DNA of 64,000 bases, taken from the NCBI RefSeq assembly GCF_011386835.1, contig NC_088792.1:59524081-59588080 (forward strand), given 5' to 3'. Below are positions 1 to 62,314 of the stretch, piece by piece. Position 1 is the first letter of the stretch. Every line of letters starts with the position of its first letter. The position numbers and the translations under genes are program-made. The notes beneath the pieces were generated by a model, which did no database searches, was not told the DNA's origin, and saw only the letters and a list, made by a program, of their open reading frames with translations. This DNA is from Chrysemys picta bellii. Lineage: Eukaryota > Chordata > Testudines > Emydidae.

Positions 1-3000
1 TTCAGAGTTAAGCATATACTCAAGAGCTGTGCTGATTCAGGGCCATTATGGGTTTTATCATGCAGACATTACTCAAGCAAAGCTCGCATTTATTTAAGTA
101 GTAGGGTTGTCTGAATAAGGACTAAATTATGCAGTAGGAGTGGGTACTATTGGTTTGGTCCTGCATATGTTCAATGGCCTTGGCAGAGAATGACCTCCTC
201 TCCTGCCAGAAATTAGACAGCACACAGACTGCTACTTAGACTAGGTGCTAAATTCCAGGAATTGGCCCTTACCAGTCTATCACTGGGGGGTTGGTGGCTG
301 AGGCTATTGGGAAGACATGGAATGGGAGATGGGCTTTGAATAAACAGCTCTGAATTCTAAGGGCCTGTTTCTCAGTTTGGAAGGCTGAAGGGGCTTTAAA
401 CTTACACACACTTTCAAGCCACTTACCATTGCCAGAATGGTGTTGAGGGGCCTTAGTGTCAAATAAAATCAGGCCTGAAACCTTCAGTAGTACACTCGTC
501 ACTATTTGTATTATCAGACTATTTTTGCCTTCAGGTTAGTAGTCTATTAACACCTCAGCTTCGTCAGGGCATTTCAGCTAGTTGACTAATTTTTTTTAAA
601 GAGCTATTGATTGAAATCAGATGGACAAGATAATTCAGGACAGTTTCAACTAATGCCTTTATATTCAAAAGCTAGAATATTGCAGAAATGTCAAGTATAA
701 CTAGGAATAATTTTTTTCAAGTGAGATGATTTATATAATATTATGCTACTTTGTTTCTCTGTATTTACATACCATTGACAGCTGTGTGGGACATCCTTTT
801 ACCTTGTCATCTGGCTGACATCAGCTCAGCTGATCTACTTTGATAAATACAAACTCATTGGGCCTTTTTCTCCTGGACTTGCTCCCTTTACTGCAGTCAA
901 ATGCATTGTCATCAACAAAGAAGATGTACGCTATATGAACAATTAGCAAAGCGGATTGTTTCTAAAGGGTGAAGTGTCAGTTTCCTGTTCATAATGAATT
1001 CATCCCAAGGTGCACTTGCTACTGGAAGACTTACAGCTATATATATAAGAAACATCCTCATTCAGATCAAAATAGAGTTGCACTTGTTTACATTAGGAGT
1101 GAATTTGGCTCCATATTTTGAAGAGAATCTGTAAGGGAAGATAAGTATGGGAAAGTATTCTTATGGGGTTAAGATTGTGTCCCAAACCTATAGTAAGGAG
1201 GTTTGTGTTGCTGCAACACACCAGGAGTAGTGCAGAGAAGGAAATATGGCTCTCTGAGAATCGTAATTTCCACTCTGCTCCTACCTTGATTGATGGGGCA
1301 GTAGTATACCATTCGTCCCTGGTGCATTGTGGGGAACAGGCCTGAGCCAAGGCTACAATCACTCCCTGTGCATCTACTCAGTGGCAGAGGGAAGTAAAAG
1401 AATGCAGAGCCCTTGAATCTTGTGCACCGTGGCTCAAAGTCCAGGTAGCTTAGGCAGTGGAACAAGGTGGATTATTTCCCCTGTCGCTCCTGTGATGGTG
1501 CATGGTCTGGATCAGAATCATGAGGAATTCTTTCTGCTGAGTCTGATTAACTGTGTTAAGCACAGCTCAGCCAGACTGGGACTTTGGGCCCTTAACATGC
1601 TAAAACCCAAAGGATAAATTTAACTGTTGATCAGGTGGGAAGATTTTAAACAGGGTGTCGATTTGTGGTATTATAATTGTGCACAATTATAAAGCAGGAA
1701 GGATGTGATTGTGTGACCAAAGCAGGGTACAGCAAGCAGCCATGCAAAAAAGGGAGTGGTGTGCGGGGAGGACAAATGGAAAGAAAAAAGGACCAAACTC
1801 CTATTTTTCCCCAGCCTTAACTTGGGGCAAGAGAAGAGAATTAATGGCTAATAAAAACCTTCAACTATATGTGCCTGTCAATCTTCTGTTCTGCCAAACT
1901 GAAAGTGATCATTTTTATGGAAGCCACACGGTACAGAGAATATTGGAAGAAGTGGAAAAAGGAGACTGAAATGGTGAGCTCACAGGGCATAGAGCTGGAA
2001 GAGTGATTTGTGAACATGCCTTGAAAATCTTGGACAAATGCAGCAAAATGTCAGCCTTTATAGCATATGGTTTCATTAAAAATCTAGAGACCTGGTCCAA
2101 TTCTCATTGTAATCAATGGGAATCTTTCCACTGACTTTAATGTGAGCTGTACTAAGCCCTGCAGGCATTCAGTGTCTGCCATAAAAACTCAGTATTTGCT
2201 AACCACTTCCACAAGGTGGTGGCTGAGCTACCACAGAATATTCTGCTAGACTAGTAAATACTGCAGTAACCCAGCTACTAATCTAAAGCCACCTTTTCGT
2301 CAGTGTCGACTCTTTAATGGTGGGCACTGTGTATGAATATATGTAATGGTCAGTATATTAACGTTAGTGTTTTTTCTACTCCCCAGCCCTTTAAAAGGAA
2401 AGGGTAGTTCACTGCCCATAAAACTGAAACATTCACCGGTAGAATTGCCCTGTTGAATATTATTTGCTTGGGGTTCTGGATCATTGTCTGTAGTTAGTGA
2501 AAAATTCTGACCCAATGCCTCTGACTCCCACTGATTACAACAGCAACTCTCACACCTCTGAAGGAAGAGCTGGACCATGTAACCTTGTTCAGGTGCTACT
2601 CTCATTGACCTCAGTGGCTTTCCCTTGTATAAGTGAGAGTAGAATAGGGGCCCTAATATACTGAAGCAAGACACAACTTCCATTTGTGCTACAGAAAGAT
2701 GGTGTTAATGAGCTGAATTTTCATGATCCCTTCTTACCAAATTTTAAACATTAAAAATGCCTAGGCACTGTGGAAGTAAGAGCTACACTCCTTAGGTGAA
2801 TAGTACAGCAATTGGATTTATCAGCTCCAGTGTTTTTAGCCATAGGTGTGCAAGGAAAAGCACAACTTTGGAAAAATAACCGAGCAAGCATTTTAGCTTC
2901 AATTGTTTCAGGATTCAATACTGAGGACACGAGAAGCATTGCAAACAATGGATTCTAAATTGCATCTATCTGGCAGCAATTACCATAGATGAAAAAACCA

Positions 3001-4113: not shown

Positions 4114-4121
4114 CTCTAGAG

Positions 4122-4454
4122 CAGTGTTTCCCAAACTTGGGACACTGCTTGTGTAGGGACAGCCCCTGGTGGGCTGGGCCGGTTTGTTTACCTGCCGCAT
4201 CCGCAGGTCCGGCCGAGCGCGGCTCCCACTGGCTGCAGTTCACTGCTCCAAGCCAATGGGCGCTGCTGGAAGTGGTATGAGCTGAGGGACATACTGGCCG
4301 CCACTTCCAGCAACTCCCATTGGCCTGGAGCGGCGAACCGCGGCCAGTGGGAGCCGCGATCGGCTGGACCTGTGGACGCGGCAGGTTCACAAACTGGCCC
4401 GGCCCGCCAGGGGCTTTCTCTACACAAGCGGCCTCCCAAGTTTGGGAGAAACTG
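4122..4454. mobile_element. hAT-type non-autonomous foldback transposon
   Basis: The ends are terminal inverted repeats: cagtgtttcccaaac on the left, and the reverse complement of the right end reads cagtttctcccaaac. They are flanked by 8-bp direct repeats, ctctagag (4114-4121) and ctccagag (4455-4462), one mismatch apart; 8-bp duplications are the hAT hallmark. The interior is GC-rich and close to self-complementary over its length (the left-half segment with cccctggtgggc pairs with gcccgccagggg on the right), so a single strand would fold into a long hairpin. No transposase is encoded; the open frames on the minus strand are by-products of GC richness. Confidence 0.82.
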
Positions 4455-4462
4455 CTCCAGAG

Positions 4463-15068: not shown

Positions 15069-15614
15069 CAGGGCGGGCTTTAAGCCGATTTGGCCGATTC
15101 CCCGGAATGGGGCTCCGCGCCTCAGAGGGCCCCGCAATGTCCGGGGCTGCCGGTGGAGTGGGAGAAAAAAAAAAAAAAATGCCGCGTCCTGCTCCTCCCC
15201 CCTCCCTCCAGTGCTTGCACTGCCATACAAGAAGTGGGCTGTAGTCCACGAAAGCTTATGCTCTAATAAATTTGTTAGTCTCTAAGGTGCCACAAGTCCT
15301 CCTGTTCTTCTTTTTGCGGATACAGACTAACACGGCTGCTACTCTGAAACACTGCCATACAGTTGATCAGCTCAAGCCTGGGAGGGAGGGGTGAGGAGGA
15401 GGAATGAGGAGTGCTTGGGGAAGAGGCAGGGCCAGGGTGGGGATTTGGGGAGGGATCCCATGGGGCAGTGAGGGTGCGGGGATGGGGCGGGGCCAGGGTG
15501 GGGATTTGGGGAGGGAGCCAATGGGCCAGGGAGGGGGCGGAGTTGGGGAGGAGGGGGGGGCGCGAGACAATTTGCGTCCCGGCGTGGGGCCCCGCACCTG
15601 CTAAAGCCGCCTTG
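15069..15614. mobile_element. hAT-type non-autonomous element inserted in CR1
   Basis: The terminal inverted repeats are cagggcgggctttaag on the left and, as reverse complement of the right end, caaggcggctttagc. The flanking target duplication is exact: cctctgac at 15061-15068 and 15615-15622, 8 bp as expected for hAT. Removing 15069-15622 restores CR1 3'-end sequence. The interior is G-rich, with two tandem 61-bp units starting at about 15431 and 15492 (gccagggtggggatttgg) and several runs of four or more G. A Penelope-like 3' end is nested inside at 15229-15349. No transposase is present. Confidence 0.88.
15229..15349 (+). mobile_element. Penelope-like element 3' end, nested
   Basis: A 121-bp 5'-truncated insert begins with aagaagtgggctgtag and ends in the complete family terminus acacggctgctactctgaaa. 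It is flanked by an exact 11-bp duplication, cactgccatac, at 15218-15228 and 15350-15360. It retains the hammerhead-like stem, the GAAA box and the agcttatgc segment, but the truncation removes the upstream catalytic box. Assignment to Penelope-like elements rests on similarity to the longer copy at 61158-61510, which includes an ORF end resembling the GIY-YIG protein C-terminus. Confidence 0.82.
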
Positions 15615-15775: not shown

Positions 15776-16851
15776 TTGTCTCCTGTCAATTCAATATATG
15801 GGTGAAATATTGCCCAATGCCAGCCACTAATTGCATAGCTTCTCTCTGGAAATTCTTGATGAGGGAACTGTATCCACAGCACAACTTATTTTCCTACCAG
15901 CTGGCAAAAATGGGAGGGAACTACTTTTGCTCACATACAAATTTATTAATATAAATATAGGCTTGCTTAAATTGCATGTTAAAAGCTAACGGAAGCAGCA
16001 TCAGCTATCACAGTAAACCATTTCTTCATGCTTCTGGCCAGAAGTTTTATAAATATTTTCTTTGTGTTTACATTCATGCAGAAAAAAATTCACAATATTA
16101 TTTCTTGGGAGTTGAAGTGCTAGATTTTTTTTGAACATCCTAATGACAACATTTCATTGCCAAACCTCTAACTGCATTCATTACAGATTGTAAACAACAT
16201 AGAGCTTAACAGCATTCTCAGATTGTAAATGCCATAAAGAGAAAATGAACAATAGATATTCATAATGAGGCCATTTAGAATCAAGACAAATGGTTGTTAT
16301 ACTGTATTCCAAATGCTAACAAGCATACCTATTGACCTCCATGGAGCAGAGTTACTCCAACGCTGAATGCTTCTGAAAATCCCACCCTATGAAGCCTGAA
16401 GAATTTTAGGTGGAGATGAAGAGTGCTTACATAAAAGTTCAACCCTCGCAAGAGTGGAGGCTGTTTGGGGAAGAGGCTATTCTCCTGTAAAGCCAGGTGA
16501 AAGAAGTTGTAATTGGGACAGCCAGCTGCGGTTGTAAATCTCTGTGAGAATTCTTCTTGCCTAAGGAGATCACCTAGCATTAGCTAGGTGCAACCCCAAG
16601 GGACTGACTAGCACATGGTGGCCTGGGAGTTGATTATTTTTGAGTTGGGTTGGAGCAAGCCTCTTGGTTATGTATTCTGTTCATCTGCACTCACTCAAAA
16701 CCAGCTAACGTTTCCTCCCAGTGACAGTACTGATGCGGTAAGCAACGTAGGCAGAGCTGGGTAGGGGCGGGGGACGCATGGGAGGGCATTGCCCCTCGCC
16801 CCCAACTGCAAGCCTCAGGCTGGCAGCCTGAGTGTGCAGTGTAATGAGTTT
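15776..16851. other. No gene recognised
   Basis: AT-rich DNA without a recognisable coding or repeat signature. The part near 16740-16850 becomes GC-rich just before the TIR element that follows. Confidence 0.55.
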
Positions 16852-17409: not shown

Positions 17410-18965
17410 AACTGATTTTTTTAGACAAAGAAAATGCAGTGGATCTAATCTACCTGGCGTCAGTAAGGCATTTGATACAGTTCCACATGATAAATTATTA
17501 GTTAAATTGGAGAAGATGGGGATTAATATGAGAACTGAAAGGTAGATAAGGAACTGGTTAAAGGGAAGACTACAACAGGTCATACTGAAGGTGAACTGTA
17601 AGGCTGGAGGGAGGTTACTAGTGGAGTTCTTCAGGGATCAGTCGTGGGACTTATTGAACATTTTTATTACTGACCTTGGCACAAAAAGTGGGAGTGTGCT
17701 AATAAAATTTGCAGATGACACAAAGTTGGGAGGCATTGCCAATACCGAGGAGGATTGGAATACCATACAAGAAGATCTGGATGACCTTGTAAACTGGTGT
17801 AATAGAAATTGGATGATATTTAATAGTGCAATGTGTAAGGTAGGTCGTGCATTTAGGTACTAACAACAAGAATTTTTGTTATAAGCTGGGGACTTATCAG
17901 TTGGAAGTGACAGTGTAGGAGAAAGAGCTGGGTGTATTGGTTGATCACAGGATGACTATGAGCTGTCAATGTGATGCGGCTGTGAAGAAGGCTAATGCAG
18001 TCCTAGGATGTATCAGGTGCGGTATTCCCAGTAGAGACTGGGAAGTGCTAGTACTACTATACAAGGCACTGAGGAGACCTCATCTGGAGTATTGTTTGCA
18101 ATTCTGGTCTCCCATGTTTAAGAAAGATGCATTCAAACTGGAACAGGTGCAGAGAAGGGCTACAAGGATGATCTGAGGAATGGAAAACCTATCTTATCAG
18201 AGGAGACTCAAAGAGCTTGGCTTGTTTAGTCTAACCAATAGAAGGCTCAGGGGAGATATGATTACTCTGTATAATTACATAAGAGGGATAAATAGCAGAG
18301 AGGGAGAGGAGTTATTTAAGGTAAGCATCCATGTGGATCCCAAAACAAATACATATAAACTGTCCATCAACAAATTTAGGCTTGACATTAGGCAGAGGTT
18401 TGTAATCATCAGAAGAGTGAAGTTCTGGAGCAGCCTCCTGAGGGGAACAGTGGGGGCAAAAAGCCTAACTGGCTTCAAGACTAAGCTTGATAAGTTTATG
18501 GAGGGGATGGTATGATAGGACTGCCTACAATGGGCCATCAGCGAATGCCTATAGCAAAAGTCCCCAGTGGGTGGAGGCGGAACACTAGATGGAGAGGGCT
18601 CTGAGTTACTACAGAGAATTATTTCCCAGGTATCTGCCTGGTGGGTCTTGCCCCCATGCTCAGGGTCTAACCGATCCATCATATTTGGGATCAGGAATTT
18701 TTTCCCCCCAGGGTCAGATTGATAGAGATCATGGGGGGTGGGGTTCACCTTCTTATGCAGCATGGGGTAACTTTCAGGTTTAAACTAGTGTAAATGGTGA
18801 ATTCTCTGTAACTTGAAGTCTTTAAATCATGATTTCAGGACTTCAGTAACTCAGTCAGAGGTTAGGGGTCTATTACAGGAGTGGGTGGGTGAGGTTCTGT
18901 GACCTGCAATGTGCAGGAGGTCAAACTAGATGATCACAGTTGTCCCTTCTGATTTTAGCAAGAGT
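17410..18965 (+). mobile_element. CR1-type LINE, second copy, 5'-truncated
   Basis: The CR1 remnant starts within the reverse transcriptase (KENAVDLIYLASVRHLIQF-like reading near 17428-17480). It contains the catalytic FADDTKL at about 17708-17728, the post-catalytic block ending NRNWMIFNSAMCKV, and the C-terminal conserved section RPHLEYCLQFWSPMFKKDAF (18078-18137) followed by LEQVQRRATRMI. The 3' tail carries the aaactagatgatcacagttg motif typical of CR1 ends near 18925-18945. Frame changes at about 17865, 17935 and 18177 show it is dead. It is less decayed than the copy at 12969. Confidence 0.92.
17937..18515 (+). pseudogene. CR1 ORF2 C-terminal region
   Basis: Two adjacent open segments, 17937-18176 and 18180-18515, separated by one stop (tga at 18174-18176), encode the C-terminal third of CR1 ORF2. 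The first has the block RRPHLEYCLQFWSP. The second has SYQRRLKELGLFSLTNRRLRGDMI and ends with a LTGFKTKLDKFMEGMV-type terminus just before the 3' UTR. The same C-terminal block can be read on the minus strand at 44601-45066, which supports the family call. It acts with reverse transcriptase in target-primed insertion in live elements. Confidence 0.88.
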
Positions 18966-22314: not shown

Positions 22315-23106
22315 GTGATTCCTGATGATCAAAAGATGACCACTTTGGCTGCAAAATTGACTGGGAGAGCTCTGGACATATTCAATAAAATGCTAATGGG
22401 AGATGCTCCCAATTATGGTAAATTTAAGGACTTGGTTTTGAAACAGTTTCAGATTACATCTGAAATTTATAGAGTAAAATTTAGGAGCCTTAAGAGAGGG
22501 GCTGGATTAATTAATGTGGCTTATGTGAACCAAATGAGAGATCTACTGGATAAGGGGTGAAGGGAAAGGTATTACAAGCTTTGAAGGAATTTGTGATTTG
22601 ATTGCTCAGGGACAGTTCCTGAATATGTCTAGTGATGTAAAACAGTGTTTATGGGATAAAAAGTTAGAAACAGTCAATGAATTTGCAGTTTTTGCAGATA
22701 AATTTGAGCAATCCCAAGCATCTAGTAGGAATAAATCACAGGCAGAGGGGTTTATGTTTGGTGGGAAGCAAGGTCTCCATTTTACCCCTGGGAAGAAGGA
22801 GGGTGGGTGGGAGGCTGGACACTCAGCTCCCCAAGTTCACTCCTCCAGTCCTCATTCCAAATCTCCCATAAAAGCAGAAGAGCCCAGAAGGTGCTATTAT
22901 TGTAATTCCACTGAGCACCTGAGGAGTAAATGCCCTGTGATGAGTGGGAACAGGCAGCAGGTAACTCATGGAAATGCTGCTACCCAGAGTACAGATGCAC
23001 CTCAGGCAGTTGCCACTTATCACACAGGATTTGTAAAGGTTGCTACTGCACAGCCAGTCAGTAAGCACCTAAAGGCTGTCAAAGTAAATGACAGAGAACT
23101 CCTTGC
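22315..23106 (+). pseudogene. Gmr1-like Gypsy gag with SCAN-like capsid part
   Basis: Capsid/nucleocapsid remnant. The first open segment (22315-22557) contains DIFNKM, YRVKFRSLKRG and YVNQMRDLLDKG; after a frame change the second (from 22598) has DVKQCLWDKK, FAVFADKFEQ and a zinc knuckle CYYCNSTEHLRSKC (CX2CX4HX4C) at 22892-22933 that would bind packaged RNA. The helix-pattern segment resembles the vertebrate SCAN domain, which is thought to descend from Gmr1-like gag. The 5' half of gag is missing: the sequence starts abruptly at the junction with the inverted pol fragment at about 22310. A host SCAN zinc-finger gene is unlikely because protease follows directly. Confidence 0.78.
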
Positions 23107-23630
23107 ATAGAGAGATACTGGTGCAGAAAACTCTGTGGTCAGGAGAAACCTGGTTCAGGAGAAAGACATACTGCTAGGACAGATGTCAGAGCTTTTGTTA
23201 GTAGGGGGTCACAAAATCCTTGTGCCTTTGGCTAAAGTGCACATGAAAACTGAGGATTTGCAATCCAAATTAACTCACTGTGGTCTCTCAGAATCCTACA
23301 CACATTCTTCTGGAAAATGACTTTTTAAATGTGGCTAGGGCTGTCCAGGGGTCTGTCAGCAGCAAAGAGGAATTTTGTGCTGAAGCCCCAGTGGGAAGGA
23401 GCAAAGCTACAGAAACTGCTGAGGAAATGAGGAGTGTCTCTTTAATTTCTCTACTGCCCTGCAAAGCAATTTTCTACCAAAGGTGGGGGTGGGTAAAACC
23501 AGCTCCAGTCCTGTGGCTATCCCCTCAGGGGATGGGAGGGTTTTGCCTGATGGTAGGGAGTCTGTGCTGTGTTGACTGAGCGCGTAGGTCACATGGCATC
23601 ATTCTTCTCCAGCATTGGTTGAATATAATA
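23107..23630 (+). pseudogene. Gypsy aspartic protease remnant
   Basis: Directly downstream of gag and in the same frame after one TAG stop (23108-23110), the sequence reads RDTGAENSVVRRNLV. DTGA at 23114-23125 is the active-site loop of retroviral-type aspartic proteases that cut the polyprotein; in live enzymes two subunits pair to form the site. VGGHKILVPLAKVHM follows as an expected beta-strand region. The frame stops at 23318-23320 and sequence related to the protease-to-integrase spacer may continue to about 23630. Nothing of integrase follows here, since pol lies inverted upstream of gag. Confidence 0.68.
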
Positions 23631-26628: not shown

Positions 26629-26809
26629 TGGAGTACTTGTGGCACCTTAGAGACTAACAAATTTATTAGAGCATAAGCTTTCGTGGGCTACAGCCCACTT
26701 CTGTAGTCCACGAAAGCTTATGCTCTAATAAATTTGTTAGTCTCTAAGGTGCCACAAGTACTCCTGTTCTTTTTGCGGATACAGACTAACACGGCTGCTA
26801 CTCTGAAAC
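26629..26809 (+). mobile_element. Foldback Penelope-like 3' end
   Basis: A hairpin insertion with an exact 12-bp target duplication, atgaataagcac (26617-26628 and 26810-26821). The left arm (to about 26702) is antisense and lacks the last ~45 bp of the family 3' end; the right arm (from about 26703) is sense and ends with the complete terminus ctgctactctgaaa. Both arms share the stretch from the hammerhead-like stem (gtccacgaaagcttatgc on the right) to cacaagtactcc. Because one duplication brackets both arms, the hairpin was inserted as a unit. No coding capacity. Confidence 0.85.
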
Positions 26810-27155: not shown

Positions 27156-27339
27156 TATCAGAGGGGTAGCCGTGTTAGTCTGAATCTGTAAAAAGCAACA
27201 GAGGGTCCTGTGGCACCTTTAAGACTAACAGAAGTATTGAGATTTCCATTACTTGCATCTAAAGAAGTGAGGTTCTTACCCACGAAAGCTTATGCTCCCA
27301 ATACTTCTGTTAGTCTTAAAGGTGCTACAGGACCCTCTG
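27156..27339 (-). mobile_element. Foldback Penelope-like 3' end, second subfamily
   Basis: The left arm (27156 to about 27249) is antisense and contains the complete 3' terminus, seen as tatcagaggggtagccgtg. The right arm is sense from acttgcatctaaagaagtg and stops at gaccctctg, missing about 40 bp of the end. The target duplication ttggatttaagag is exact over 13 bp (27143-27155 and 27340-27352). The hammerhead-like box is decayed (ctaaaga) but the stem, gaaa and agcttatgc remain at 27270-27297. The family terminus is ccctctga, differing from the ctactctga subfamily at 26629 and 55449. Confidence 0.84.
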
Positions 27340-36552: not shown

Positions 36553-36702
36553 GTACAGTAACTCCTGTAGTTATGTTCTTGAAAAATGCGACTTTAAGTG
36601 AAACGATGTTCAGCTAATCCAATTTCCCTGTAAGAATTAATGTAAATAGAGGGGTTAGATTCCAGGGAATTTTTTTTCACCACACAAGACACATACATAT
36701 AC

Positions 36703-36798
36703 ACTTGCATCTGAAGAAGTGAGGTTCTTACCCACGAAAGCTTATGCTCCCAATACTTCTGTTACTCTTAAAGGTGCCACAGGACCCTCTGTTGCTTT
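36703..36798 (+). mobile_element. Penelope-like 3' fragment with hammerhead-like core
   Basis: A 96-bp insert flanked by an exact 10-bp duplication, atacatatac (36693-36702 and 36799-36808). It starts acttgcatctgaagaag and stops at gttgcttt, lacking the last ~33 bp of the family 3' end. It is the same subfamily as 27156. It holds the most complete ribozyme-like core of the window: gcat, ctgaaga (36711-36717), a short stem, gaaa (36736-36739), agctt, atgc (36744-36747). Confidence 0.82.
36707..36747 (+). ncRNA. Minimal hammerhead ribozyme-like motif
   Basis: In RNA sense: helix I gcat/atgc flanks the motif. CUGAAGA fits the CUGANGA core box, with position 7 free. The imperfect stem II starts with GUG pairing CAC. 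GAAA follows, then AGCU, which is its own reverse complement, so helix III could form only between two molecules. Hammerheads of this reduced, possibly dimeric form have been reported in Penelope-like elements. One extra A between the first box and stem II departs from the textbook core, so self-cleavage may be weak or absent. Confidence 0.6.
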
Positions 36799-37325
36799 AT
36801 ACATATACAGTATATGTTTTGAACAATTTTAAACAATGTAATACTGTATTCATGACTGAAGTTTGGTGGAGTTGGTGGAGTCAGAGGGTGGATTGTCGGG
36901 CTGCTCCTCTTGCTGTTCTTGCTCCTCCCCCCTCCCTCCCTGCACCTCCCACCTGCAGCAATCAGCTGTTTCATGGCATTCAGGAGTCTCCGGAGGGGAG
37001 GGGAGAGGCTGTGTGTCACTCCTCCCCCCTACCCCCCAGAGCCTCCTAAATGCCACGAAACAGCTGATTGCTGCAGGCGGGAGGCGCCAGGAGGGAGGGG
37101 AGAGTTGCTGGTCCGCAGGGCTCGCCGGTGGGTGAGAGGCACTGGGGGTGTGTGTGGAGGGGAGCTGATGGGGGGGGCTGCCGGCCCACCCTGGTTCCAA
37201 GCTCCTACTCACTAGCAGGCAGCTGCCAAACAATGTTCTAAGCAAACATTGCACAACTTTAAATGAGTATGTTTTCTAATAGATCAGAGACGTAACAACG
37301 TTAACCAAGACGATGTAACTCCTCA

Positions 37326-39771: not shown

Positions 39772-41669
39772 TGGTGGATGCTGGGCCTGGCACGAGGCAG
39801 GTGTCAAGTCTGGAGTCACACAGAACCCCATGCTTTTTAAGTTACTTCTGCCAGATATTCTTCAGGACATCATAAATGCATGATGCTTCCCATCCTCCTC
39901 CTCAGATGCTGTAGGTGCTTCCCTCCCACCCACGCTCTTCATGATGTCACGACCATAATTCGACCCACTGAATTTAGGAAACCTAATAAACCCCCTACCC
40001 GGTTGTTTAGAACCTAGACTGCCAGTTTCTATGGCTCATGTGCTGTTTGCAAACACATTTACAGGAGATATGATGGGGATAGAGTAGCTTCTGGGGCATC
40101 TGAAATACCAGTACTAGGACTGCCATCACAGGAAAGCTATAACACATTTCTCTGCTTCCTAAACCGATCCTGTTCCTGGGCTTTGTGTGCTTCTAGACTG
40201 TTTCCATTTCATACAGGGGGGATATGGGCCAGAACAGAGAATTGGGAGTCCAGATTCCTGGCTTTCAACTGAATTTGGAGAAGGATATGAAGCAAGTAAA
40301 GGAAAAGGAGGACAGGGATGATATGCCTCCACTTCCTTGTGTGAGAGGTGTCTGGTTGTAGCATTGTGAATCACTTGAAGCTTAGGGAGTGAGCATTTAG
40401 GATGAACATAAAAAAGGAAACAGCCATAACACTAAAGAAGGGTGCGTATTTCCAAATGCAGCTTGTCTTTTAATAGGAAAATAACATTAAAATGGTGTCT
40501 GAAATATACATCTTTAAAGCCTGATCAGTGTTGTATCATCCCTGACCGAGGGGGAAATGGGCATGTTGAATTATATTTGCTACCCATTTATTTTCAGAGG
40601 CCCTCAATATTTCTGGAGTCAATTTTCTAAAGCCCTCTCCTTAAGGAAAGGTTCCTTCTTATATCCAGCAGAGTTCGAAGCCTCCTACAAAACACTCATT
40701 TGAAAAATAATCATTTAAAAGAACATTTGAGAGTTACCATCTATTGACACTTCAAATCCCATCCCACTGCTAGCCGTTGTTATACTATGGGCCACATCAT
40801 TGGGCCATCTCACCTACTTTCAGCTGACCTAGCAGAGCAAGATTCAGAATCTATGCCACTTGAGCATTCCTGTCATGTTAGGCAGAGTGAGCACAGCTGG
40901 TTCTGCCCCACTCCCCACAGAACGCAGTGTACATGATATTTCTGTGGTTCCTTGAGGCGGTAAGCTTAAATTAGAACCTCCTGAGCCCAAGCAGTCCCTT
41001 GCAGGACCCAGGATTGGAATTCATTAAAGGATTTGCCTATCTTCTCTGTACTGAGCATTTCAGCTGCAGCTGAGATGCTAGCCTTGGACGTTTCAATTCC
41101 TCTCATTTATAGTAATGGGGGAGTGTCTCAGTTTTAATGTAGAATTATCACACACAGTGGCATTGGTAATGTTTCTTCTAAACCACTACCTTGGAGGAAT
41201 AATAGGAGTAGTGTTTTAATGACTAGCTCTCTGAACAACAGGACTTCACACTTGGCAGTGAGAACTAGTTTAGCTCTCTAAAAATCAGCAAGCGTGTGTG
41301 GTTTCTTTTGTTAATTGAAAAGGTCTATATTGATGTAAACATGGTCTTATAGCAAATGGCTCCTCTGTTAGAGGAGCCATTTACTCAGGTATGAGAAAAG
41401 TGTTGTTCCACTGAACACCGCAAATGACAACAATTGACTTGCAGGTATGTCTTGCTTTCATCCAGAAAGATACTGTGATACAAGCATAGGCACAGCTAAC
41501 AATTTGCCACAGTACAGCAACACTTTTTAAGTTATTTTTTGTAAAGCTCTTTAAAGTGCTATAGAACTTATCATATTACGGGGCCTGAGCCTGCACTTTT
41601 TACTCAGGTAAAATTCCCACTGACTTAAGAAAAACTAGGTAAAGGAGTAACGAAATGGCCCAGAGGTTA
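39772..41669. other. No gene recognised
   Basis: No coding or repeat signal recognised. A CATT-rich palindromic patch at 41345-41390 (tggctcctctgttagaggagcca) forms a short perfect hairpin of about 10 bp arms. Confidence 0.5.
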
Positions 41670-49770: not shown

Positions 49771-50870
49771 TGTAGTAGGTTTGGGCCAAGGTTCGGCCCT
49801 CTGGTCCGGCGGCAGTCTGGGACAACAGGCACATGGTTAGGGGCTCAGGCCCATAAGCAGGGGCTGAGTCAAGTGGTCCGAAACCCAGGCCCTTAAGCAA
49901 GGGCTGAGGCAAAGTCTATAGCGGCCCAGGCCCTAAGTCAGGGCGGGCAGCAAGCAAACAGTCTGTCAAAGGCCCAGGCCCTTAAGCAGGGGCTGGGTCC
50001 GTTTGTGATAACCCAGGCCCTAGGTCAGGGCGGGGCAGCAAACAAATAGTCAAGCAGTGGCCCAGGCCTTGTAGCAGGGGCTGGGTCAGTTTGGGGCAGC
50101 CCAGGCCCTAGGTCAGGGCGGGGCAGCAAACAAATAGTCAAGCAGTGGCCCAGGCTTTGTAGCAGGGGCTGGGTCAGTTTGGGGCAGCCAGGCCCTAGGT
50201 CAGGGCAGGGCAGCAAACAAATAGACAATCAGGTACCCAGCCTCTCTAGGCCAGGGGAAACAGGGGGAGTCTGCCACCCAAGGAGTGGGTGACAGGGAGG
50301 ACGCAGGCCCTCCCACTCCACTGCGTCCCAGCCCAGGGCCCTAGCAGTGACAGAAACTCGCTGCTGTCATTGGGGATCCTGGCCGCAACACACTGACATC
50401 GGCTCTGGCAGTGCTGCAGCCAGACTGGGGTCGGCTGTCCCCGGGCTACTTCCGCACTCCCCCTCGTATGGTACCTGGGCTGTCTTGCTGTCGTCGGTGC
50501 TCTCCACCAGCATTGGCACCTCTGGGTAGGTGGCAAAGGGCAGGCTCGGCTCATCCTCGGGGTAGCTGGCACGGGGCAGGCTTGACCAGTCCGCCTCGGG
50601 GTACCTGACGAGGGGTAGGCTCGACTGGCCCGGTGACTCAGCAGGCCAGTCGTGGCCTGCGGCTGTTTCCCAAGCGGGAACTCAGCCACAGACGTCTGCT
50701 CTCTCCGCCGGCCTGGGCTCCACTGAGCTCTGCAGGTGAGCTTTTATATTTCCGGGTCGGGGCCGTGACCTCGGAGGGGCGGGTGCCGGACCTGGTGGCT
50801 CCGCCCATGTTGGGATTAGGGGAGGTTCGGCCCTCAGCGGGGCTGTGGGATGTCCCACCGCCTTGCTACA
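49771..50870 (-). mobile_element. Solo LTR B, 1.1 kb, with 87-88 bp tandem repeats
   Basis: On the minus strand it starts tgtagcaaggcgg and ends acctactaca, with an exact 5-bp duplication gcatt (49766-49770, 50871-50875). A TATA-like aatataaaag (50741-50750, minus) near the 5' side sets the orientation and implies a short U3 and a very long R-U5. Within that long part, units of 87-88 bp start at 49926, 50013, 50101 and 50188, and half-length relatives extend upstream to about 49830. A 147-codon minus-strand frame at 50246-50689 has no recognisable domain and is probably chance in GC-rich DNA. Class is Ty3/Gypsy or retroviral; 5-bp duplications fit several. Confidence 0.75.
49926..50240. repeat. 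Tandem repeat, 87-88 bp period
   Basis: Four starts of ccaggccctaggtcagggcg-type units at 49926, 50013, 50101 and 50188; the two middle units are nearly identical, with the outer ones more diverged. Each unit contains two related half-units based on aggccct and caggggctg. Confidence 0.88.
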
Positions 50871-55448: not shown

Positions 55449-55809
55449 AAAGAACAGGAGTACTTGTGGCACCTTAGAGACTAACAGATTTATTAGAGCA
55501 TAAGCTTTCGTGGACTACAGCCCACTTCTTCGGATGCATATAGAGTAGAATAAATATTGAGGAGATATATATACACACATACAGAGAGCATAAACAGGTG
55601 GGAGTTGCCTGGTAAGACAACTCCCACCTGTTTATGCTCTCTGTATGTGTGTATATATATCTCCTCAATATTTATTCCACTCTATATGCATCCGAAGAAG
55701 TGGGCTGTAGTCCACGAAAACTTATGCTCTAATAAATCTGTTAGTCTCTAAGGTGCCACAAGTACTCCTGTTCTTTTTGCGGATACAGACTAACACGGCT
55801 GCTACTCTG
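55449..55809 (+). mobile_element. Large foldback Penelope-like element
   Basis: The best hairpin of the window. Left arm 55449-55607 (antisense) and right arm 55618-55776 (sense) are 159 bp each, nearly identical, and separated by a 10-bp loop, cctggtaaga. Only the right arm continues through gcggatacagactaacacgg to the family terminus ctgctactctga. The left arm ends inside ttcttt, about 34 bp short. A 12-bp duplication aagcctcagaag flanks the whole (55437-55448, 55810-55821). Hammerhead-like parts in both arms are slightly decayed (ccgaaga in place of ctgaaga). Open frames of 64 codons on both strands reflect the symmetry. Confidence 0.88.
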
Positions 55810-58598: not shown

Positions 58599-59247
58599 TA
58601 GTGCCCTACCAAATTCACGGCCATGAAAAACGCGTCACAGACCATGATGGTCTCCTCCTGTGAAATCTGATTTTCTTTTGTGTGCTTTTACCATATACTA
58701 TACAATTTCATGGTGAGAGACCAGTGTTTCTCAACCTGGGGGTCCTGACCCAAAAGGAGATTGTGTGTGGGGGGTGTCACAAGGTTATTTTAGGGGAGTC
58801 ACGATATTGCCATCCTTACTTCGGCTCTGCCTTCAGAGCTGGGTGGCTGGAGAGTGGTGGCTGTTGGCTGGGTGTCTAGCTCTGAAGGCAGCAGTGCAGA
58901 AGTAAAAGTGGCCATACCATGCCATCCTTACTTGTGTGCTACTACTGGTGGTGGTTCTGCTTTCAGAGCTGGCCTCCCAGCCAGCAGCCGCTGCTTTCCA
59001 GCCACCCAGCTCTGAAGGCAGCACTGCCACCAGCAGCAGTGCAGAAGTAAGGGTAGCAGTACCGCAACCTCCCCTACAATAACCTTGCGAACCCCCCGCC
59101 CCCCAATTCCTTTTTGGGTCAGGACCCCTACAATTACAACACTGTGAAATTTCAGATTTAAATAGTTGAACTCATGAAATTTACAATTTTAAAAATCCTA
59201 TGACTGTGAAATTGACCAAAATGGACCCTAAATTTGGTAGGGCCCCA
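58599..59247. mobile_element. hAT-type foldback transposon, 649 bp
   Basis: The ends tagtgccctaccaaattc and (right, reverse complement) tggggccctaccaaattt are inverted repeats, with an exact 8-bp duplication ctcatact (58591-58598, 59248-59255). The interior is a very long imperfect hairpin: ctgggggtcctgacccaaaa (58736) is mirrored by ttttgggtcaggacccct (59112), and cttcagagctgggtggctgg (58831) by ccagccacccagctctgaag (58997). No transposase. Confidence 0.85.
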
Positions 59248-61157: not shown

Positions 61158-61510
61158 ATTTCAGAGTGGAAGCCGTGTTAGTCTGTATCAGCAAAAACAA
61201 TAAGAAGTCCCTGTGGCACTTTAGAGACTAACAAATTTATTTGGGCATAAGCTTTCCTGGGCTAAAACCCACTTCATCAGATACATGGATTGAAAAATAC
61301 TGTAAGCACTATAAATATCTCAGAACATGAAAAGATGGGAGTTACCTTACCAAGTGGGGGGTCAGTGCTAATGAGGCCAATTCAATTAAGGTGGACATCG
61401 CCCATTTCCAACAGTTGACAAGGTGTGAGTATCAGCAGAGGGGAAATTACTTTTTTTAGTGAACCATCCACTCCCAGTCTTTGTTCAGGCCTAGTAACTA
61501 ATGTTAAACT
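61158..61510 (-). mobile_element. Penelope-like element 3' region, longest copy
   Basis: Minus orientation: the terminus appears as tttcagagtggaagccgtg at the left. Moving inward it passes the hammerhead-like region (61245-61284) and a longer unique 3' UTR, then an ORF end. On the minus strand, 61494 to 61456 reads LGLNKDWEWMVH followed by a stop, which matches my knowledge of the C-terminus of GIY-YIG-bearing Penelope-like proteins. This copy links the short repeats at 15229, 26629 and 55449 to that class. The 5' side is truncated near 61510. Confidence 0.7.
61245..61284 (-). ncRNA. Hammerhead-like motif with intact CTGATGA
   Basis: On the minus strand: guau, CUGAUGA (61274-61280), stem II with loop uuuua, GAAA, AGCU, augc. 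One substitution (cag in place of cac before GAAA) breaks the pair next to the core, and helix I has one G-U. It is older than the copy at 36707 but keeps the canonical first box. Confidence 0.55.
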
Positions 61511-62314
61511 TCAGAGTCTTCCTTCTAATAAAACAGTGTCCTATATCTTATGAAGAATGGAATAAAAAATGATTGACCACTCAATGCATCCATATCTGGC
61601 ACATTTTGCTTCTAAATTGCCTCTAATGTGAAAAGGGAGCTATAAAGAAATTAGAAATGTAGTGTTCAAAACGGAGTTCTGTGACTATTATACTTGCTTT
61701 AGCAAAGTTCTTAAAGGAACTCCCATTAAAATCCAATTTCTGATGGAGTACCCTTTAACTAGTATGTCATGAATTTATATTTATTTTATAATTTATTGCA
61801 TATTTTTCTGCCCCCCGTTGATGTTTACGAATGTCTTTTCACCAAGGGAAAAACTGACTAAGGCCCCAATCCTGCAAACACACACATGATTAACTTTATT
61901 CACATTAGTATCATCGATGAAGCACTTGTATCACTGTTTGTAGGATTAGTGTTGATCTAATTAATCAGGGGAAACTGTGAAAGAAACTATATACAAAGTG
62001 CTGTCAAATACAGAATAAACCAACTGAATCAGTACTGAAAGTTCTCAAACTTTCTCTTATAGTAATCTTGGGTGTTCCTTGTAATTGGATTGGAGGTGAT
62101 CGTGAATTTTTCATCAAAATGATTTTTTGACATAAAATGCAGTTTCCACAAAGTCAAAATTTTCTATGGGAGACATTTGATTTTTCCCAAATCTTTTGGT
62201 TTTCCTGATGGAGAATCTAAACAAAATATTTAGTTTCAGTGGGTTTGACTTGAATTGAAACATTTCAGTTTCTTGAACTGAACTGAAGCATTTTGGCAAC
62301 AAAAGTTCCTTTTT
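61511..62314. other. No gene; one T/A-rich repeat
   Basis: The 62097-62310 part (tttttcatcaaaatgatttt, gtttccacaaagtcaaaatt, gaaacatttcagtttcttga) shows alternating inverse motifs like those near 3930 and 54140 and may be an old DNA element. The rest is unassigned. Confidence 0.4.

What the first reader, a model, noticed from the sequence alone, without database searches (positions are those of the whole stretch)
36703..36798. Hammerhead-like ribozyme core in a Penelope-like 3' end, with a self-complementary helix III
Positions 36707-36747 carry, in order, gcat, ctgaaga (fits CUGANGA), a short hairpin, gaaa, agct and atgc. gcat and atgc can form helix I. AGCU after GAA is its own reverse complement, so helix III could only form between two RNA copies, which matches the dimeric minimal hammerheads described for Penelope-like elements. 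An extra A after the first box is a departure that may weaken cleavage. The same parts recur, more or less decayed, at 15229, 26704, 27270, 55500, 55673 and 61245.
Basis: partly seen in the sequence, partly recalled or inferred. Interest (0 to 1): 0.85.

Follow-up and report, generated by a model that had tools for sequence, protein, structure and literature searches.

The report
Hammerhead motif in Penelope retrotransposon fragments
A 95-base scrap of what looks like a Penelope-like jumping gene carries the small self-cutting RNA motif (hammerhead) that such elements are already known to carry, so the kind is known, but the scraps in this stretch of genome record how such elements insert themselves.

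Summary
In detail: 36707-36747 holds helix I, CTGAAGA, a 6-bp hairpin, GAA, self-complementary AGCT and a CUU cut triplet. It lies in a 95-bp insertion (36704-36798) flanked by an 11-bp target duplication. The family has nine arms in six insertions; eight arms carry all or part of the motif.

Best reading: a minimal type I hammerhead in a Penelope-like (PLE) pseudo-LTR, a known kind. No Rfam hammerhead model matched at E<=10. The extra A is in 7 of 7 arms covering it; the published lizard ribozyme PAc, which cleaves with protein help, also has one extra base there and a self-complementary helix III.

Inserted 3' ends fall at +45..+56 or +86..+93 from the cut. PAc reverse transcription starts at +82..+89, although the sequences do not align. 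All 3 inverted insertions pair one end of each class. In two, each arm holds sequence the other lacks, favouring priming from both target strands. No determined 5' end lies at the cut and 8 of 9 arms span it. Covariation is weak, activity untested, and the genome search did not complete.

The parts
36693..36703 (.). left target-site duplication ATACATATACA of insertion I4
   Evidence: 11-nt exact repeat; 0 of 3000 random placements as long
36704..36798 (+). insertion I4: 95-bp single-arm Penelope-like pLTR fragment without tail, holding the finding
36707..36747 (+). hammerhead-like motif: helix I 36707-36710/36744-36747, core CTGAAGA 36711-36717, extra A 36718, helix II 36719-36735, GAA 36736-36738, self-complementary AGCT 36739-36742, H17 = T 36743 (predicted cut after it)
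36799..36809 (.). right target-site duplication of I4
15230..15349 (+). insertion I1: single arm with tail, 5' end inside the hammerhead core (cut minus 28); target duplication CACTGCCATACA on both sides
26630..26808 (.). insertion I2: head-to-head inverted pair, minus arm 26630-26702 without tail, plus arm 26701-26808 with tail; target duplication CATGAATAAGCACT
27156..27339 (.). insertion I3: head-to-head inverted pair, minus arm 27156-27242 with tail and no hammerhead, plus arm 27243-27339 with hammerhead (27255-27295) and no tail; target duplication TTGGATTTAAGAG
55449..55809. insertion I5: head-to-head inverted pair, hammerheads at 55498-55537 (-) and 55688-55727 (+), minus arm without tail, plus arm with tail; target duplication AAGCCTCAGAAG (10 nt by script, 12 nt read by eye)
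61159..61520 (-). insertion I6: longer minus-strand copy with tail, hammerhead 61245-61284; 5' boundary and target duplication not found. The end near 61520 is an estimate; a LLGLNKDWEWMVH frame at 61459-61497 (-) resembles a Penelope ORF end as recalled
   Evidence: the ORF resemblance is recalled

Best explanation
The finding is the pseudo-LTR (terminal) segment of an endonuclease-bearing Penelope-like retrotransposon. It was inserted by target-primed reverse transcription as a 95-bp fragment carrying the family's minimal type I hammerhead. In the family RNA the hammerhead cut lies about 45-56 and 86-93 nt upstream of two alternative reverse-transcription start sites; the stretch between them is the optional 'tail'. 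The enzyme cuts both target strands and can prime on either or both, so single-arm and head-to-head inverted insertions arise. Helix III (AGCU) can form only between two RNAs or two tandem units, so cleavage would need a dimer and, by analogy with the lizard element, protein help. Shown here: anatomy, target duplications, two end classes, arms that cannot copy each other, and copies that cross the cut site. Inferred: PLE identity (no coding region tested positive), priming on both strands, cleavage ability. This copy is a dead fragment with no known local role.
For: Motif layout. Same layout in PAc: core CTGAGGA, one unpaired base, helix II, GAA, self-complementary ACGT, H17, helix I (sequence from PMC11167929 Methods; parsed). 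Target duplications of 10-14 bp in 5 of 6 insertions; 0 to 3 of 3000 random placements as long. Inserted 3' ends at +45..46, +48..51, +53..56 and +55, and at +86..89, +89..90, +90, +91 and +92..93 from the cut. PAc start site at +82..+89 and another ACAAC at +46, with no sequence similarity above shuffles: 117 to 157 of 200 shuffles reach the score. Head-to-head inverted pseudo-LTRs with an optional tail on one, and short target duplications, are described for Penelope elements (PMC3846280, passages). In the lizard element both target strands are cut and extended, the tail is the stretch between two start sites, and ribozyme mutants do not affect insertion (PMC11167929 main text). The cut site is spanned by 8 of 9 arms, and 0 of 8 determined 5' ends lie at +1 (and coordinates read).
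Against: No Penelope coding domain was found: of 36 ORFs of 110 aa or more, 10 were scanned, none with RT or GIY-YIG. No Rfam hammerhead model matched at E<=10. Covariation is weak. Helix III adds only -0.5 kcal/mol to the computed dimer, and +0.3 in PAc. Two of four insertions covering the first box depart from CUGANGA. I6 has no target duplication found. The position of PAc's second start site was inferred from a repeated motif, not read from its figure. Two-strand priming rests on three insertions and one comparator; I5 alone could be a snap-back.
Confidence: 0.85

Rival explanations
1. The hammerhead is a catalytic relic in this family: the fold is kept as a landmark for the element's protein or reverse transcriptase, and cleavage is lost or unused. 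(This shares the identity part of the best explanation and differs on the ribozyme's use.)
For: CCGAAGA (position 4 changed) in both arms of I5, so its template probably already had it, and that element still moved; CTAAAGA at 27255. The cut is spanned by 8 of 9 arms. PAc ribozyme mutants do not affect insertion (PMC11167929). That position-4 changes cripple hammerheads is recalled, not from a call.
Against: GAAA (8 of 8), the AGCU block (7 of 8) and helix I are well kept, and CTGANGA is intact in two insertions. The arms may simply be young, so conservation says little.
Confidence: 0.4
2. Retrozyme: a small non-autonomous element with flanking direct hammerheads that spreads through circular RNA.
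For: Short non-coding insertions with hammerheads and target duplications. PMC7761336 (passages) names PLEs as likely candidates to mobilise retrozymes.
Against: None of 6 insertions shows two hammerheads in direct orientation (I6 not fully bounded). Insertion ends follow PLE start-site classes, and 0 of 8 determined 5' ends lie at the cut.
Confidence: 0.04
3. Inverted insertions come from snap-back self-priming (self-priming is proposed for rotifer Penelope, PMC3846280) rather than from priming on both target strands.
For: Head-to-head palindromes with short loops, best seen in I5 (4-nt loop, 169-nt arms 96% complementary). The I2 junction lies in the stem II hairpin.
Against: In I2 and I3 each arm has sequence the other lacks (5' part in one, tail in the other), and the tail-less arm ends in the proximal class in 3 of 3.
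Confidence: 0.2
4. Chance assembly of hammerhead-like parts in an unrelated repeat.
For: The parts are short, no Rfam hammerhead model hits, and covariation is weak.
Against: 0.03 expected hits per simulated window (descriptor written after the fact). Layout and spacing match PAc. A review states that all available PLE sequences show hammerhead motifs (PMC6155905 passage).
Confidence: 0.04

Closest known systems
PAc / Poseidon_Ac hammerhead, Anolis carolinensis PLE (Frangieh et al. 2024, PMC11167929)
   Same: Helix I, CUGANGA, one extra unpaired base, helix II, GAA, self-complementary 4-nt helix III, cut, then a reverse-transcription start at +82..+89
   Different: No sequence similarity above shuffles. 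Helix I is 4 bp not 3, cut triplet CUU not GUC, and the window copies are short fragments without a tested ORF.
Minimal type I hammerheads of Penelope-like elements (Cervera and De la Pena 2014; Lunse et al. 2017; neither text held, known here through citing papers)
   Same: No intramolecular helix III, located in pseudo-LTRs, dimers proposed
   Different: Position-4 C in one insertion. Whether the extra base is general in that set could not be read.
Rotifer Penelope (Pen_Av) inverted pseudo-LTR insertions (Arkhipova et al. 2013, PMC3846280)
   Same: Head-to-head pseudo-LTRs, optional 31-bp tail on one, target duplications of 8-10 bp in the flanked examples seen
   Different: There self-priming is proposed. 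Here two of three inverted insertions do not fit simple snap-back.

Membership tests
Minimal type I hammerhead of Penelope-like elements | CUGANGA and GAAA boxes in order | tested here: met
   36707-36747 has both. Across arms GAAA 8 of 8, strict CUGANGA 2 of 5
Minimal type I hammerhead of Penelope-like elements | Helices I and II | tested here: met
   62 of 63 cells paired (98.4%); covariation weak. In the monomer minimum fold of 4 of 5 arms folded
Minimal type I hammerhead of Penelope-like elements | No intramolecular helix III; pairing between two units | tested here: met
   AGCT is its own reverse complement in this copy; one of eight arms has AACT, which is not. The dimer fold is allowed but is not the minimum
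Minimal type I hammerhead of Penelope-like elements | Self-cleavage at the predicted site | not testable with these tools
   needs bench work
Rfam hammerhead families (types I, II, III, HH9, HH10; names recalled) | Match at the curated score | tested here: not met
   0 matches at gathering; no hammerhead family among the matches at E<=10 (2 rows: 51 rows)
Endonuclease-bearing Penelope-like element insertion | Short target-site duplications | tested here: met
   5 of 6 insertions, 10-14 bp; none found for I6
Endonuclease-bearing Penelope-like element insertion | Direct or inverted pseudo-LTRs with optional tail | tested here: met
   3 of 6 insertions inverted; two 3'-end classes
Endonuclease-bearing Penelope-like element insertion | ORF with reverse transcriptase and GIY-YIG | tested here: inconclusive
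   none found in 10 of 36 ORFs scanned; insertions too short to hold it; own-genome search did not complete
Retrozyme | Two hammerheads in direct orientation bounding the unit | tested here: not met
   0 of 6 insertions, I6 not fully bounded

The most novel reading that the evidence does not exclude
In vertebrate Penelope elements the hammerhead and the two reverse-transcription start sites form one RNA module of fixed length: hammerhead cut to starts about 45-56 and 82-93 nt, kept while sequence diverges beyond recognition, with one conserved unpaired base after A9. The fold serves mainly as a ruler and docking site that lets the enzyme prime both target strands at different starts, which produces tail/no-tail inverted insertions. 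Cleavage would disconnect start site from element, so it acts as an off-switch or is unused.
Probability: 0.3. Interest if true: 0.6.

Novelty: new member of a known kind. Interest (0 to 1): 0.36.

Why it matters
The role of hammerheads in Penelope elements is described as unknown (PMC7761336, passages). This family adds a test set of short insertions whose ends record where reverse transcription began and show that most templates were uncut at the ribozyme. The matching spacing in a lizard element with no alignable sequence makes a measurable prediction about how the fold is used.

Tried and rejected
Own-genome search with the family segment was tried nine times and never answered, so no genome-wide consensus or copy count exists here. 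Scans of viral contigs and genome contigs for a hammerhead pattern and a tail pattern found 0 matches; the tool warns that records of the window's own genome may be left out. A text search for six sequence pieces of the family found 3 papers, judged unrelated from the listing. Papers by Lunse 2017, Cervera 2014 and Craig 2021 are not held. The Rfam list at E<=10 has 51 rows, all below gathering. Those with E under 0.01 are microRNA models. Those at 55565-55660 and 27204-27334 sit on the inverted arms of I5 and I3, and one at 58816-59038 on another inverted repeat; the rest were not examined. I took them as hairpin noise. The covariance model built from eight arms recovered those eight (one, at 26697-26723, only at E 0.074) and two weak extra matches (39878-39909 and 15998-16031, E 0.22 and 0.36), treated as noise. 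A target duplication for I6 was looked for and not found. Retrozyme and chance readings were rejected as given among the rivals.

Full report
Observation. The window at 36707-36747 reads, in order, GCAT, CTGAAGA, A, a 17-nt hairpin, GAA, AGCT, T, ATGC. The monomer minimum-energy fold of this copy contains helices I and II; of five arms folded, four do. A hammerhead descriptor, written after seeing the motif and so biased towards it, finds only this site in the window with core CTGANGA and three sites with C[CT]GANGA, all in this family. Second-order Markov windows give 0.03 hits each (100 simulations). No Rfam hammerhead model matches at the curated score or at E<=10, so it is not a member of those models as curated.

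Family. BLAST and a profile search agree on nine arms, and a covariance model built from the eight motif-bearing arms recovers those eight. I group them into six insertions: I1 15230-15349, I2 26630-26808, I3 27156-27339, I4 36704-36798 (the finding), I5 55449-55809 and I6 from 61159 on the minus strand. Five of six have exact target duplications of 10-14 bp; random placements with equal spacing reach those lengths in 0 to 3 of 3000 trials each. For I6 none was found. I2, I3 and I5 are head-to-head inverted pairs.

Core. Column by column: GAAA is in 8 of 8 arms and AGCT in 7 of 8. The box is CTGANGA in 2 of 5 arms, CCGAAGA in 2 (both arms of I5) and CTAAAGA in 1; by insertion, 2 of 4 keep it. 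The extra A before helix II is in 7 of 7 arms that cover it. Helix I and II cells pair in 98.4% (62 of 63), but covariation is weak: one stem II pair shows C-G, U-A and U-G. 50 of 500 shuffles reach the covariation score and 322 of 500 the number of pairs changed on both sides.

Comparison with a studied element. The Methods of Frangieh et al. 2024 (PMC11167929; abstract, main text, methods and references read) print the template RNA of PAc, a Penelope element of the green anole. Parsed with the same kind of rules it reads CCT, CTGAGGA, one unpaired T, helix II, GAA, ACGT, C, AGG. It therefore has one extra base at the same place and a self-complementary 4-nt helix III. That ribozyme cleaves only with protein present, and its catalytic mutants do not affect insertion. 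The extra A in the window family is therefore better read as shared layout than as decay; the comparison rests on one element.

Insertion ends. Counted from the predicted cut, inserted 3' ends are at +45..46, +48..51, +53..56 and +55 in four arms, and at +86..89, +89..90, +90, +91 and +92..93 in five. PAc reverse transcription begins most often at ORF bases 111-118, which is +82..+89 from its cut, and the same ACAAC motif also occurs at +46. The paper says the 30-40-bp tail is the sequence between two start sites; its figure with the second site was not seen. The two elements show no sequence similarity above shuffles here (117 to 157 of 200 shuffles reach the score).

Inverted insertions. In 3 of 3, one arm ends in the proximal class and the other in the distal class. 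In I2 the minus arm alone has the 5' bases AGAAGTGG and the plus arm alone has the tail. In I3 the plus arm alone has the hammerhead and the minus arm alone has the tail. Neither arm could be templated from the other, so simple snap-back self-priming does not explain these two. Self-priming is proposed for rotifer Penelope (PMC3846280, passages and Discussion read). Priming from both cut strands, both of which the anole enzyme extends, does explain them. I5 could be either. A search for papers with both 'Penelope' and 'twin priming' listed three; judged from the listing, none is about Penelope insertions. This is no proof that the idea is unpublished.

What the ribozyme does. None of eight determined 5' ends lies at +1, the end that cleavage would make: offsets are -28, -28, -19, -49, +5, -40 and about -110 twice, with I6 undetermined (I1 and I4, the others counted by hand from coordinates). 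Eight of nine arms span the cut, so their templates were uncut there; the anole authors suggest likewise that unprocessed RNA is the main substrate in vitro. Because the start sites lie downstream of the ribozyme, cleavage would separate them from the element body. The dimer fold needed for helix III is computed at -15.9 kcal/mol against a dimer minimum of -22.0, and helix III itself adds only -0.5. PAc behaves alike (-15.5 against -31.6, helix III +0.3). So energy neither supports nor excludes dimer cleavage.

Limits. The host genome could not be searched (nine attempts), the window holds no tested Penelope ORF (10 of 36 ORFs scanned), and Penelope identity rests on layout, spacing and insertion anatomy. 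That the host is a reptile, probably a turtle, and that such repeats abound there, is recalled and comes from no call.

Noticed in passing
15230 and 26702 (-): Two independent insertions (I1 and the minus arm of I2) start at the same base, AGAAGTGGG, 28 nt before the predicted cut; perhaps a recurrent RT stop or RNA 5' end.
   Followed up: partly
22538-23110 (+): 190-aa open frame with weak SCAN-like and zinc-knuckle (CCHC) matches, below the Pfam cut-offs; looks like a retroelement gag remnant.
   Followed up: partly
18177-18515 (+): Open frame GMENLSYQRRLKELGLFSL... resembles the end of CR1 LINE polyproteins as recalled; Pfam gave nothing above cut-off.
   Followed up: no
4114-4275 / 4301-4462, 36925-37008 / 37021-37104, 58827-58891 / 58957-59021: Other near-palindromic inverted repeats of 65-162 nt arms with short loops, not of this family; origin unknown.
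   Followed up: no
49925-50249: Tandem array of an 88-bp unit, about four copies.
   Followed up: no
61459-61497 (-): Frame LLGLNKDWEWMVH just before a stop, upstream of the I6 hammerhead, resembling the C-terminal end of Penelope/Poseidon proteins as recalled.
   Followed up: partly
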